From: Jiangella aurantiaca
GTDB taxonomy: Bacteria > Actinomycetota > Actinomycetes > Jiangellales > Jiangellaceae
NCBI RefSeq assembly: GCF_004349105.1
Contig: NZ_SMLB01000020.1
Coordinates: forward strand, 1 to 64,000
Reading direction: 5' to 3'
Length of the DNA stretch: 64,000 nt
Shown here: positions 17 through 59,571 of the stretch, one piece after another
Numbering within the stretch: position 1 is the stretch's first letter
Layout of the letters: the number at the start of each line of letters is the position of its first letter
Translations under genes and position numbers: made by a program
The notes under the pieces: generated by a model
What the model saw: only the letters and a program-made list of their open reading frames with translations
The model's database searches: none
Told to the model about the DNA's origin: nothing

Positions 17-727
17 GTGACGGACGAGCTCGAGCCCCAAGGCCGACCGCGAGGTCCCAAGCAACCGCGAGGCCCTCAAGGGAACAGGATCACCGTGCTG
101 CTGGTCGACGACGAGCCGTTGGTGCGGGCCGGGCTGCGAGCCATCATCGACGCCGAGCCCGACCTGCGTGTCGTCGACGAGGCGGCCGACGGCGCCGAGG
201 TAGGACCGCTGGTGAGCCGGTCCCGCCCGGACGTCGTGCTGATGGACGTGCGGATGCCCGCCGTCGACGGCATCCAGGCGACCCGCCTGCTCAGCCGCCG
301 CGACGACCCCCCGCGTATCCTCGTCGTCACCACGTTCGAGAACGACGACTACGTGTACGAGGCGCTGCGGGCCGGTGCGCACGGGTTCCTGCTCAAGCGG
401 GCCCGGCCGGAGCAGATCGTGCAGGCGGTCCGGACGGTGGCCCGCGGCGACTCGCTGCTGTTCCCGGCCGCCATCCGCAGCCTCGCCGCGTCGCACGGCA
501 CGAACGGCAGCGACGCGCTGGCCGGTGCCGGGCTGAGCGAACGCGAGGCCGAGGTGCTGCGGCTGATGGCGGCCGGCCTGTCCAACGCCGAGATCGCCGC
601 CGAACTGGTCGTCGGCGTCGAGACGGTGAAGACGCACGTCGGCAACGTGCTCACCAAGCTCGGCGTCCGCGACCGCACCCAGGCCGTCATCGCCGCCTAC
701 GAGTCCGGCTTCATCAGCCCCCGCTGA
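17..727 (+). CDS. NarL/FixJ-family response regulator
   Basis: DNA-binding response regulator of 236 residues that would receive phosphate from a DesK/NarX-type sensor kinase and control transcription. The receiver domain spans about residues 24-145, with acidic pair D31/D32, phospho-acceptor D77 in LMDVRMP, switch T105 and conserved K127. A LuxR-type HTH follows at about 170-230 (LSEREAEVLRLMAAGLSNAEIA, then VKTHVGNVLTKL). The GTG start at 17 contains a TGA at 18-20 in another frame, so the gene probably overlaps the stop of a sensor kinase lying just outside the window. Odd point: residues 7-22 (Pro/Gly/Arg-rich) are encoded by a 50-bp dispersed repeat. A GTG at 95 is an alternative start but would cut into the first beta strand of the receiver. 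Confidence 0.9.
   Translation: MTDELEPQGRPRGPKQPRGPQGNRITVLLVDDEPLVRAGLRAIIDAEPDLRVVDEAADGAEVGPLVSRSRPDVVLMDVRMPAVDGIQATRLLSRRDDPPRILVVTTFENDDYVYEALRAGAHGFLLKRARPEQIVQAVRTVARGDSLLFPAAIRSLAASHGTNGSDALAGAGLSEREAEVLRLMAAGLSNAEIAAELVVGVETVKTHVGNVLTKLGVRDRTQAVIAAYESGFISPR
35..84 (+). repeat. 50-bp dispersed repeat, copy 1 (in coding sequence)
   Basis: This segment matches 59501-59550 at 44 of 50 positions, with a 22-base identical core. It contains GACC-GCGA-GGTC and CC-GCGA-GG, small hairpins capped by a GNRA-type tetraloop, in the manner of a REP element. Here it is translated in frame as the Pro/Gly/Arg-rich N-terminus of the response regulator; the second copy is intergenic. Confidence 0.7.
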
Positions 728-838
728 CCCTTCCTCCCACACCCAAGTTGATCTTGGAGTAACCGGGGTATTCATCGGACATATCACCCAGCAACTCCAC
801 GGTTACTCCAAGATCAACTTTGGCGGGTGAGGGAAGGG
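728..838. repeat. Dispersed stem-loop element, family 1 copy 1
   Basis: Starts directly after the stop codon at 727. Perfect 21-bp inverted arms (745-765 and 800-820) begin AAGTTGATCTTGGAG on the left. Imperfect pairing extends outward to CCCTTCC at 728 and GGAAGGG at 838. The 34-nt loop carries ATCGGACATATCACCC (774-789). Arm start and loop core recur at 44592-44663, so this is a repeat family and not a one-off terminator, although a hairpin this strong after a stop codon could also terminate transcription. Confidence 0.8.
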
Positions 839-48223: not shown

Positions 48224-49444
48224 CTAGTTTTCCATTCCCTCGTGTGGCTCGCCGCCGCCTCGGACCTGGGGGTCGGCCCTGGGGCAATCGAAAGGTACGG
48301 AGGCGGTCACGCGGAAGCCCGCGCCACCGGGTCCCGGCCCGGTCTCGAGCGTCCCGCCGGCCGCGGCGACCCGCTCGCGCATCCCGATCAGGCCGTGCCC
48401 GCTTCCGTCGGCCGACGGTGTCGGGGGCGCGCTCGGCGGGCCGGCGCCATCGTCGGCGACCTCGATGCGCAGCGCGTCGCCCGACCAGGTCAAGCGGACG
48501 TCCACCCGGCCGGCCCCGGCGTGCTTGACGGTGTTGGTGAGCGACTCCTGGACGATCCGGTACGCCGTCGCCGCGACGTCCGCCGGGACCGGCCGCGGCG
48601 CGCCGTCCTCGGCGAGCGTCGCCGCCAGCCCCGCGTCGTTGACCCGCTGGACCAGGCCCGGGAGGGCGCCGAGGCCGGGTTGCGGCGCACGGTCGCCGCC
48701 GCCGTCGTCCGCCGCACGCAGCACGCCGAGCACGCGGCGCAGCTGGGCCAGCGCGTCGCGGGCGGTGACGGAGATGGTGTCGAACATCTGCTCCGCGCGG
48801 TCGGGGTCGTGCCGGACGGCGACCGGCCCGGCCTCCGCCTGGACTACGACGAGGCTCATCGAGTGGGCGAGGATGTCGTGCATCTCGCGGGCGATCCGCT
48901 CGCGCTCCCGCGTCGCGGCGGTCTCCTGCTCCTGGGTCAGCCGCAGCGCGCGTTCCTCCAACATGGCGATGCGGTCGCGGCGGGCCCGGGCCGCGGTGCC
49001 CAGCGCGTAGGCGACCGCGAACATGATGCCGATCATGCCGAGGTTCAGCGCCTCGTCACGCGGGACGATGATCGAGATGGAGATGCCGAGGACCGTGGCC
49101 GCAACGGCGATCAGCCGCTTCAGCGGCGGCGATAGTGCGGCGAACGTGTAGGTGGCGACCAGCTGTGCCGCCGGGACGTCGGCCAGGATGTCCGCGCTGG
49201 CCAGCACCGTCGTCGAGATGCCGGTGATGGCGGCGACGGCGAACGGGTGCTGCCGCCGCCACAGCAGCGGCAGCGCGTTGACCGACGCCGCCAGCGGCAC
49301 CCACCAGTACAGCTTGTCCGCCACGCCCGCGTTGAAGATCACGTAGAGCGCGCAGGCCGCGGCCACGACGGCGTCGACGGCGACCGGTGGCAGGCCGCGC
49401 GCCCACGCGGCCAGCCGCTCGCCGTACTCGCTCAGTCGCGCCAC
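48224..49444 (-). CDS. DesK/NarX-type sensor histidine kinase
   Basis: About 406 residues from the GTG at 49444. Four to six N-terminal membrane helices (about 15-150) act as sensor. The HisKA_3 dimerisation segment holds the phospho-acceptor His in ERERIAREMHDILAHSMSLV. The HATPase domain carries N-box RIVQESLTNTVKHAG and G-box VADDGAG and GHGLIGMRERV. The upstream in-frame ATG at 49609 is rejected because its extra residues overlap the hen1 remnant region. Partner of the response regulator, with which it shares an operon ahead of the MMPL gene. Confidence 0.92.
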   Translation of the reverse strand: MARLSEYGERLAAWARGLPPVAVDAVVAAACALYVIFNAGVADKLYWWVPLAASVNALPLLWRRQHPFAVAAITGISTTVLASADILADVPAAQLVATYTFAALSPPLKRLIAVAATVLGISISIIVPRDEALNLGMIGIMFAVAYALGTAARARRDRIAMLEERALRLTQEQETAATRERERIAREMHDILAHSMSLVVVQAEAGPVAVRHDPDRAEQMFDTISVTARDALAQLRRVLGVLRAADDGGGDRAPQPGLGALPGLVQRVNDAGLAATLAEDGAPRPVPADVAATAYRIVQESLTNTVKHAGAGRVDVRLTWSGDALRIEVADDGAGPPSAPPTPSADGSGHGLIGMRERVAAAGGTLETGPGPGGAGFRVTASVPFDCPRADPQVRGGGEPHEGMEN

Positions 49445-58863: not shown

Positions 58864-59496
58864 ATGATCCGGGCCGCCGCGGTGCTTGTCGCCCTGCTGC
58901 TCGTCGCGTGCACGGGTGACCACGGCGGCCACGCCGCGACGCCGTCGGGAACGCCGTCGGCGACCACGCGGGAGCGGAACGAGCAGCTGCGGGCCGAGCT
59001 GCTGGAGATGATGGAGCAGGATCAGGCCGAACGGTCCGGCGAGGTCGCCGGGGAGTGGAACGACCAGGAGCGCACGGACCGGCTGGCCGAGATCATCGAG
59101 GAGCACGGCTGGCCCGGATCGGACCTCGTCGGCACCGACGGCGCCAGCGCGGCCTGGGTGATCGCCCAGCACTCCGACCTCGACCCGGAGTTCCAGCGGC
59201 AGGCGCTGGAGCTGATGCGGCCCGCCGCCGAAGCCGGCCTGGCCGACCCCGGCGAGCTGGCCTACCTGGAGGACCGTGTCGCGCTGAATTCCGGCGGCGA
59301 ACAGGTCTACGGCACCCAGATCGGCTGCGTGGACGGCGTGCCACAGCCCGCGCCGCTCTCCGACCCGGAGACGGTCGACGAGCGGCGGGCCGAGGCCGGA
59401 CTGGAGCCGCTGGCCGACTACCTGGCCACGCTCGAGGAGGCCTGCGCCGCCGAGGCCGCGGCGAGTGCCAGCGCCAGTCCGACCCCCTTCGGCTGA
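58864..59496 (+). CDS. DUF6624-like lipoprotein
   Basis: 210-residue exported lipoprotein. The N-terminus AAAVLVALLLVACTGDHGG has a clear lipobox (LVAC). The mature part has the DUF6624 features RNEQLRAELLEMMEQDQAER, HGWPGSDLVGTDGASAAWVI and QHSDLDPEFQRQALELMRPA, then ALNSGGEQVYGTQIGC. The ATG at 58864 is chosen because it starts the signal peptide directly. It converges on the beta-propeller lipoprotein gene, and both stops lie in one inverted repeat. Function unknown. Confidence 0.85.
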   Translation: MIRAAAVLVALLLVACTGDHGGHAATPSGTPSATTRERNEQLRAELLEMMEQDQAERSGEVAGEWNDQERTDRLAEIIEEHGWPGSDLVGTDGASAAWVIAQHSDLDPEFQRQALELMRPAAEAGLADPGELAYLEDRVALNSGGEQVYGTQIGCVDGVPQPAPLSDPETVDERRAEAGLEPLADYLATLEEACAAEAAASASASPTPFG

Positions 59497-59571
59497 CTAG
59501 CCCCAGAGCCGACCGCGAGGTCCCAAGCAGCGGCGAGTCCCACAAGGGAAAGGAAACCAGTCAGCCGAAGG
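59486..59571. terminator. Inverted repeat holding both stop codons of convergent genes
   Basis: CCTTCGGCTGACT (59486-59498) and its exact complement (59559-59571) flank 60 bases. The TGA of the plus gene (59494-59496) and of the minus gene (59563-59561) are both in the stem, and both proteins end Phe-Gly. The stem can serve either direction. The loop contains copy 2 of the 50-bp repeat. Confidence 0.6.
59501..59550 (+). repeat. 50-bp dispersed repeat, copy 2 (intergenic)
   Basis: Partner of positions 35-84 (44 of 50 identical; core GCCGACCGCGAGGTCCCAAG). It lies between two convergent stop codons in the loop of a 13-bp inverted repeat and is not translated. Confidence 0.7.

What the first reader, a model, noticed from the sequence alone, without database searches (positions are those of the whole stretch)
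35..84. Dispersed 50-bp repeat captured in frame at the N-terminus of a response regulator
Positions 35-84 and 59501-59550 agree at 44 of 50 bases. In the first place the repeat is translated into a Pro/Gly/Arg-rich lead before the receiver domain; in the second it is intergenic. The GCGA-capped mini-hairpins point to a REP-like element. A mobile repeat that rewrote a protein's N-terminus, and perhaps its start codon, is uncommon to catch.
Basis: seen in the sequence. Interest (0 to 1): 0.6.

Follow-up and report, generated by a model that had tools for sequence, protein, structure and literature searches.

The report
Mobile repeat captured inside protein genes
A 60-base mobile repeat, present in over a hundred copies in this bacterium (genus Jiangella), often lands next to stop codons but has also slipped in frame into working genes, here adding a 20-residue floppy stretch near the start of a response regulator.

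Summary
In detail: 35-84 and 59501-59550 agree at 44/50. The insertion reading is supported by empty-site comparison. The genus is Jiangella. In 9 of 12 Jiangella genomes the regulator begins MTDEITVLLVDDEP or the like; in three (window, G009, G011) exactly 60 bp (window 29-88) follows codon 4. The start codon was not rewritten: in 11 of 11 relatives the upstream gene's TGA overlaps it. AlphaFold gives residues 1-21 pLDDT<50. The repeat is a genus-restricted family: 139 model hits here, 2-58 in the other 11. Its 5' end tends to be CTAG; 26 of 60 copies not wholly inside an ORF follow a same-strand stop codon directly, 20 of them TAG. Two more in-frame insertions were proven inside conserved proteins: an E1 dehydrogenase (57 bp) and a helicase-like protein (60 bp, other strand). 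'REP-like' is only partly right: the tag is CTAG, not GTAG; folding is no better than shuffles; no Y1/RAYT transposase was found in any of 12 genomes, so the mobilising enzyme is unknown. Closest parallels: Rickettsia palindromic elements and intragenic REPs.

The parts
17..727 (+). NarL/LuxR-type response regulator, 236 aa, GTG start; receiver residues 27-139, GerE 173-226
   Evidence: ORF; PF00072, PF00196; first strand at residues 25-30
29..88 (+). 60-bp in-frame insert (residues 5-24, LEPQGRPRGPKQPRGPQGNR), absent from 9 of 12 Jiangella orthologues
33..93 (+). profile match to the dispersed repeat (E 2e-13)
59497..59560 (+). intergenic copy, CTAG...CCAG, filling the gap between two convergent stop codons; empty in 5 of 5 relatives compared
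48224..48287 (-). third copy, at a histidine kinase/response regulator junction, read as a C-terminal extension of the kinase; empty in G004, G008, G010, filled in G001, G007
48224..49444 (-). histidine kinase ORF whose last codons come from the third copy (...DCPRADPQVRGGGEPHEGMEN*)
   Evidence: HisKA_3, HATPase_c

Best explanation
Window 29-88 is one copy of a non-autonomous, genus-restricted mobile repeat of about 60 bp. Shown: it is dispersed; its sites are filled in some species and empty in close relatives; in this genome it favours the 3' side of CTAG (TTAG, GTAG and CGAG are also seen), a word that here is rare and lies mostly at stop codons or between genes. Apart from the terminal TAG its consensus can be read through in all six frames, so a copy whose length is a multiple of three can persist inside a gene. 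In the regulator it follows codon 4 and would be translated as a disordered 20-residue stretch. Inferred: a transposase acting in trans moves it, without a clear target duplication; the stretch is close to neutral for the protein.
For: Empty/filled orthologues of the regulator; upstream TGA overlapping the regulator start in 11 of 11 relatives. 47 core copies with <=3 mismatches, reversed-pattern control 0. 139 model hits here and 58, 34, 31, 23, 18, 17, 16, 2, 2, 2, 2 in the 11 others. Filled and empty states at five further sites at gene ends. In-frame insertions inside an E1 dehydrogenase and a helicase-like protein. Open frames. In this genome 26 of 60 copies not wholly inside an ORF have a same-strand stop within 12 nt of the core and 0 at 13-60 nt; 20 of 26 are TAG against 49 of 337 stops sampled, P 1.7e-12. 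CTAG 135 observed against 1960 expected in 739 kb, 37 of 135 inside genes; CTAG at the 5' side of 27 of 73 copies, against 5 at the 3' side and 0 in eight shifted controls. Insert divergence 25-30% without codon-position bias against 7-11% downstream with third-position bias. Residues 1-21 pLDDT<50.
Against: No mobilising enzyme was found: PF01797 in 0 of 12 genomes; IS110 does not track copy number. The stop-codon habit is weaker in the other genomes sampled: G011 7 of 21 within 12 nt and 4 at 13-60, G009 3 of 16 and 1. The regulator site has CGAG, not CTAG, with extra bases on the left and fewer on the right than the consensus. Its presence pattern needs three changes on the species tree. 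My gene scoring alone preferred a start at 95, after the insert. Translation of the stretch is inferred, not measured.
Confidence: 0.85

Rival explanations
1. The Pro/Gly/Arg leader is an old feature of this regulator family and the likeness to the other repeat is coincidence.
For: Three Jiangella genomes share a leader at the same place.
Against: 9 of 12 Jiangella orthologues lack it, as do the five other-genus orthologues printed (three more gave no anchor). The leader matches a family with 139 model hits in this genome.
Confidence: 0.01
2. The repeat is untranslated leader; translation starts downstream, for example at GTG 95, and no protein was altered.
For: AGGA lies a few bases before GTG 95, and gene scoring alone preferred the start at 95.
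Against: In 11 of 11 relatives, including nine without insert, the start codon overlaps the upstream gene's TGA, and the window has the same GTGA at 17-20. A start at 95 (residue 27) would cut into the first strand (residues 25-30). The insert is open and 60 bp in all three genomes.
Confidence: 0.07
3. One ancestral insertion at this regulator, followed by repeated precise losses, explains the three filled genomes, rather than recurrent insertion at one target.
For: All three inserts are 60 bp with the same offset at both ends. The G009 and G011 copies are each other's rank 2 and rank 1 match among 126 other copies.
Against: Parsimony gives 3 changes, each filled genome having an empty sister. 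The window copy is not close to the other two (from its side ranks 76 and 31 of 126; from theirs 87 and 18). Insert divergence of 15, 18 and 18 of 60 exceeds third-position divergence downstream of 45, 32 and 40 of 200.
Confidence: 0.4
4. The repeat is a classical MITE of a DDE transposase with short terminal inverted repeats and a target duplication.
For: The ends CTAGCCCC and CTGGTTCC (reverse complement) pair imperfectly; at one site CTAGTGC and CCAGTGC flank the copy.
Against: At the three sites whose junctions I could read best (coaX-like, yqeY-like, helicase-like; names recalled) no duplication of 4 bases or more is seen. No full-length relative was seen, but no search over DDE families was made.
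Confidence: 0.25
5. The repeat is a conserved regulatory RNA or terminator spread by duplication rather than a selfish element.
For: The core consensus is the same in three species. There is an excess of copies between inverted flanks (P 0.002).
Against: Sites are filled in some species and empty in close relatives, copies occur inside genes on either strand, the proposed hairpins show no covariation and no Rfam family reaches its threshold. A first flank test gave P 0.17.
Confidence: 0.1

Closest known systems
Rickettsia palindromic elements (RPE)
   Same: Short dispersed repeats inserted in frame into many unrelated protein genes (PMC10969869 and PMC2229807, passages).
   Different: The review gives about 150 bp and a conserved peptide, in intracellular Rickettsia. 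This one is about 60 bp, in a high-GC actinobacterium (free-living: recalled), and different genes use different frames or the other strand.
GTAG REP elements with RAYT transposases
   Same: Size, copy number, gene-boundary positions; termini that supply TAG stops, and copies inside ORFs, are reported for GTAG REPs (PMC3733652, passages).
   Different: Tag is CTAG; no Y1 transposase found in 12 genomes; no folding signal above shuffles.
CGTC REP elements
   Same: A REP superfamily reported to lack a dedicated transposase and to occur inside genes (PMC3733652, passages).
   Different: Terminal CGTC is not seen at either end of the consensus here.
Bacterial MITEs (Correia/NEMIS, ERIC, YPAL)
   Same: Small non-autonomous repeats with open frames fused to genes (PMC2229807, passages).
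   Different: Given there as about 100-200 bp, these three with target duplications; here about 60 bp and no clear duplication.

Membership tests
GTAG REP / RAYT system | GTAG or GTGG tetranucleotide at the foot | tested here: not met
   5' tag is CTAG (27 of 73 copies exact; consensus)
GTAG REP / RAYT system | resident Y1 (IS200/IS605-like) transposase | tested here: not met
   PF01797: 0 of 12 genomes; 5 of 14 control genomes ring
GTAG REP / RAYT system | stable hairpin | tested here: inconclusive
   z -0.27 to -1.26; 0 of 12 pairs compensatory; in 127 copies one weak interior pair, none of the proposed hairpin pairs, among the top 25
GTAG REP / RAYT system | short, high-copy, mostly extragenic | tested here: met
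   139 hits; 60 of 73 copies not wholly inside a called ORF
Rickettsia palindromic element | in-frame insertion in several unrelated proteins | tested here: met
   three proven against orthologues: regulator, E1 dehydrogenase and helicase-like protein
Rickettsia palindromic element | one conserved encoded peptide/frame | tested here: not met
   regulator GRPRGP.., E1 ADREVPGGGESHEG, helicase-like antisense
Rickettsia palindromic element | length of about 150 bp | tested here: not met
   inserts 60, 57, 60 bp
CGTC REP | terminal CGTC | tested here: not met
   consensus ends CTAG and YCAG
MITE | terminal inverted repeats | tested here: inconclusive
   imperfect 8-bp end pairing in the fold of the consensus's reverse complement
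MITE | target-site duplication | tested here: inconclusive
   none of 4 bases or more at the three best readable sites; one CTAGTGC/CCAGTGC pair; the other sites cannot be read cleanly
NarL/LuxR response regulator | receiver plus GerE domain | tested here: met
   PF00072 and PF00196

The most novel reading that the evidence does not exclude
Jiangella carries a still active, stop-codon-seeking miniature element moved by an enzyme outside the known REP transposases; it inserts into, or leaves, the same codon of the same regulator more than once with single-base precision, using the scarcity of CTAG in coding DNA as its way to avoid genes.
Probability: 0.3. Interest if true: 0.7.

Novelty: new member of a known kind. 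Interest (0 to 1): 0.5.

Why it matters
Repeats that write peptides into working proteins are best known from Rickettsia, where reduced genomes make tolerance easy to explain (recalled). Here the same happens in an actinobacterium of 6.6 Mb, with filled and empty orthologues in 12 genomes, so age, precision, frame use and fitness cost can be measured. The missing transposase makes it a clean case for finding what else can move REP-like elements.

Tried and rejected
RAYT/Y1 transposase as the resident mover: none found. IS110: considered because AG/CT flanks the element; hits in 8 of 12 genomes but none in G002 and G006, which have 31 and 18 copies, and no element match at E<=0.01 in 27 IS110 loci. 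DDE transposases were not searched. Rfam: nothing over threshold in 12 sources, 97 kb. RNA structure: no support. Element in viral contigs (exact 21-nt pattern), phages and plasmids (E<=1e-5): none. An exact 42-nt pattern in named genome contigs found nothing, with the warning that near records may be left out. Flank pairing was tested twice: duplex energy, 59 copies, P 0.17; ungapped Watson-Crick runs, 126 copies, P 0.002. The second measure was chosen after seeing the first, so it is only suggestive. In one search several 'inside an ORF' cases looked, by eye, like start-codon over-extensions of my own simple gene caller (genes resembling lysS, DeoR, haemoglobin and NUDIX, names recalled from sequence); I do not count them as captures, but the 13 of 73 may include such cases. 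Likely captures not compared with orthologues: an NB-ARC/BTAD regulator, an aminotransferase and an acyltransferase (internal), and C-terminal extensions of ResB, Sua5, ADP-ribosylglycohydrolase, alpha/beta hydrolase and GntR/FCD genes. In two solved-structure searches the printed best alignments did not cover the insert.

Full report
What was claimed and what is there. Positions 35-84 and 59501-59550 agree at 44 of 50 bases; the next best place on the + strand reaches 29 of 50. The shared 19-nt core has two matches against 0.07 expected. A profile from 27 copies finds three copies in the window: 33-93 (+), 48224-48287 (-), 59497-59562 (+).

The genome and the family. The window is the start of contig C15 of a 6.62-Mb assembly. 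In this genome 47 copies lie within 3 mismatches of a 41-nt core, with none for the reversed pattern. A sequence model gives 139 hits at E<=0.01 here and 58, 34, 31, 23, 18, 17, 16, 2, 2, 2 and 2 in the other 11 Jiangella genomes. At most 150 candidates per genome were scored, so 139 may be an undercount; in G005 and G010 the best hits are near E 0.001, probably chance. A consensus search at E<=0.001 found it in 10 of 12 Jiangella genomes, 0 of 10 genomes of other genera of the family, and 1 of 18 more distant genomes, there only a 23-base match. In 739 kb of contigs C14, C25 and C15 there are 11 copies; these contigs were picked for length or for the window and were already known to hold copies, so this is not a blind sample. 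Seventy-three copies of this genome are at median 82% identical over 50 nt, yet the core consensus of three species is the same: old copies decay while a common source sequence seems to persist.

The response regulator. In 9 of 12 Jiangella genomes the protein starts, for example, MTDEITVLLVDDEP, MTDVITVLLVDDEP, MTGQITVLLVDDEP or MTTTVLLVDDEP. In the window genome, G009 and G011 exactly 60 bp lies between GTGACGGACGAG and ATC, coding LEPQGRPRGPKQPRGPQGNR, TQAQSRPRGPMRRQVPQGDE and PQLHGRPRGPMRPRVPQGTT. Of eight orthologues of other genera tried, five gave a readable start and none has such a leader. In an alignment with 20 further sequences (two of them Jiangella) similarity begins at about residue 25; most of those stretches were cut at the match, so that alignment does not show their own N-termini. 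The start codon is old: in 11 of 11 relatives, with or without insert, the TGA of the upstream gene overlaps the regulator's start codon; that gene, checked in G002 only, is a histidine kinase. The window itself begins only 16 bp before this codon. The predicted structure has residues 1-21 below pLDDT 50 and the first receiver strand at 25-30; Pfam places the receiver at 27-139. The inserts differ by 15, 18 and 18 of 60 with no codon-position bias, against 7-11% and strong third-position bias downstream. Frame and length are kept; the peptide is not conserved as such.

Filled and empty sites. Eight sites were compared: three in 12 genomes, two in 12, the regulator in 12, and two window sites in 6 genomes. 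Where junctions read cleanly, filled sites show CTAG, GTAG or CGAG, then the repeat, then the flank, and empty sites the same word followed by the flank, without a target duplication of four or more bases. One site shows CTAGTGC and CCAGTGC at the two ends. At 48224 (TTAG in G004 and G010) the left junction has decayed, and at 59497 and in the E1 gene the exact target cannot be read. On the tree presence needs one change at four sites, two at three and three at the regulator. So some sites are either hit repeatedly or emptied precisely; I cannot decide. For the regulator the G009 and G011 copies are near each other's best match among 126 others, the window copy is not.

Why it sits where it sits. 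Of 73 copies examined in this genome, 13 lie wholly inside an ORF called by my simple gene caller. Of the other 60, 26 have a same-strand stop codon within 12 nt of the repeat core and none at 13-60 nt. In G011 the figures are 7 and 4 of 21, in G009 3 and 1 of 16, a weaker pattern. Twenty of the 26 stops are TAG; TAG is 49 of 337 stops in a sample (P 1.7e-12). CTAG lies at the 5' side of 27 of 73 copies, at the 3' side of 5, and in none of eight shifted controls. CTAG occurs 135 times in 739 kb where base composition predicts 1960; 37 are inside genes, 33 at stop codons and 65 between genes. A repeat that inserts behind CTAG therefore lands mostly on gene ends. The copy at 59497-59560 is the clearest case: it starts right after one stop codon and ends right before the opposite one, at the centre of CCTTCGGCTGA...TCAGCCGAAGG. 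That some copies lie between inverted flanks is suggested by one of two tests (P 0.002; P 0.17).

Inside genes. Apart from the terminal TAG the consensus has no stop in any of six frames. Against orthologues, a 57-bp copy lies inside an E1 dehydrogenase in this genome alone of 12, just before the conserved VVVCSFGDAS segment, and a 60-bp copy in reverse orientation lies inside a helicase-like protein in this genome and G002, 2 of 12 (domains). At 48224-48287 the repeat took the place of a kinase stop codon (read as TAG in G004 and G010) and extends the kinase. Further likely captures are listed in Tried and rejected; they were not compared with orthologues.

How it moves. No Y1 transposase of the REP/IS200 type was found in any of 12 genomes, while the same search rings in 5 of 14 controls. 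IS110 elements do not follow copy number. DDE families were not searched. A four-base word at each end recalls the single-strand elements described in PMC6006769 (passages), but the enzyme is unknown.

Prior work. In-frame RPE insertions, REPs inside genes and REPs that give TAG stops to neighbours are published (PMC10969869, PMC2229807, PMC3733652: passages only). Searches of the open library for this in Jiangella, actinobacteria or with CTAG (listings only) showed no title or abstract start describing this family; subscription papers are not held. I therefore file it as a new family of a known kind, with a CTAG tag and no known transposase as its distinguishing points.

Noticed in passing
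window 745-765 and 800-820: A perfect 21-bp inverted repeat (AAGTTGATCTTGGAGTAACCG) with a 34-base loop lies just after the regulator stop codon (read); perhaps a terminator or another repeated palindrome.
   Followed up: no
window 59486-59496 and 59561-59571: The intergenic copy sits at the exact centre of a perfect palindrome formed by the ends of two convergent genes; relative G007 has CTAG at that centre.
   Followed up: partly
L262:13102-13221: Two head-to-tail copies, 98% identical over 50 nt, by a lysyl-tRNA synthetase-like gene (name recalled from sequence).
   Followed up: partly
L378:1607-1667: A copy in reverse orientation is read in frame inside the NB-ARC region of a BTAD regulator; not compared with orthologues.
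   Followed up: partly
contigs C14, C25, C15 of the window's genome: CTAG is about 14-fold rarer than base composition predicts (135 against 1960 in 739 kb).
   Followed up: partly
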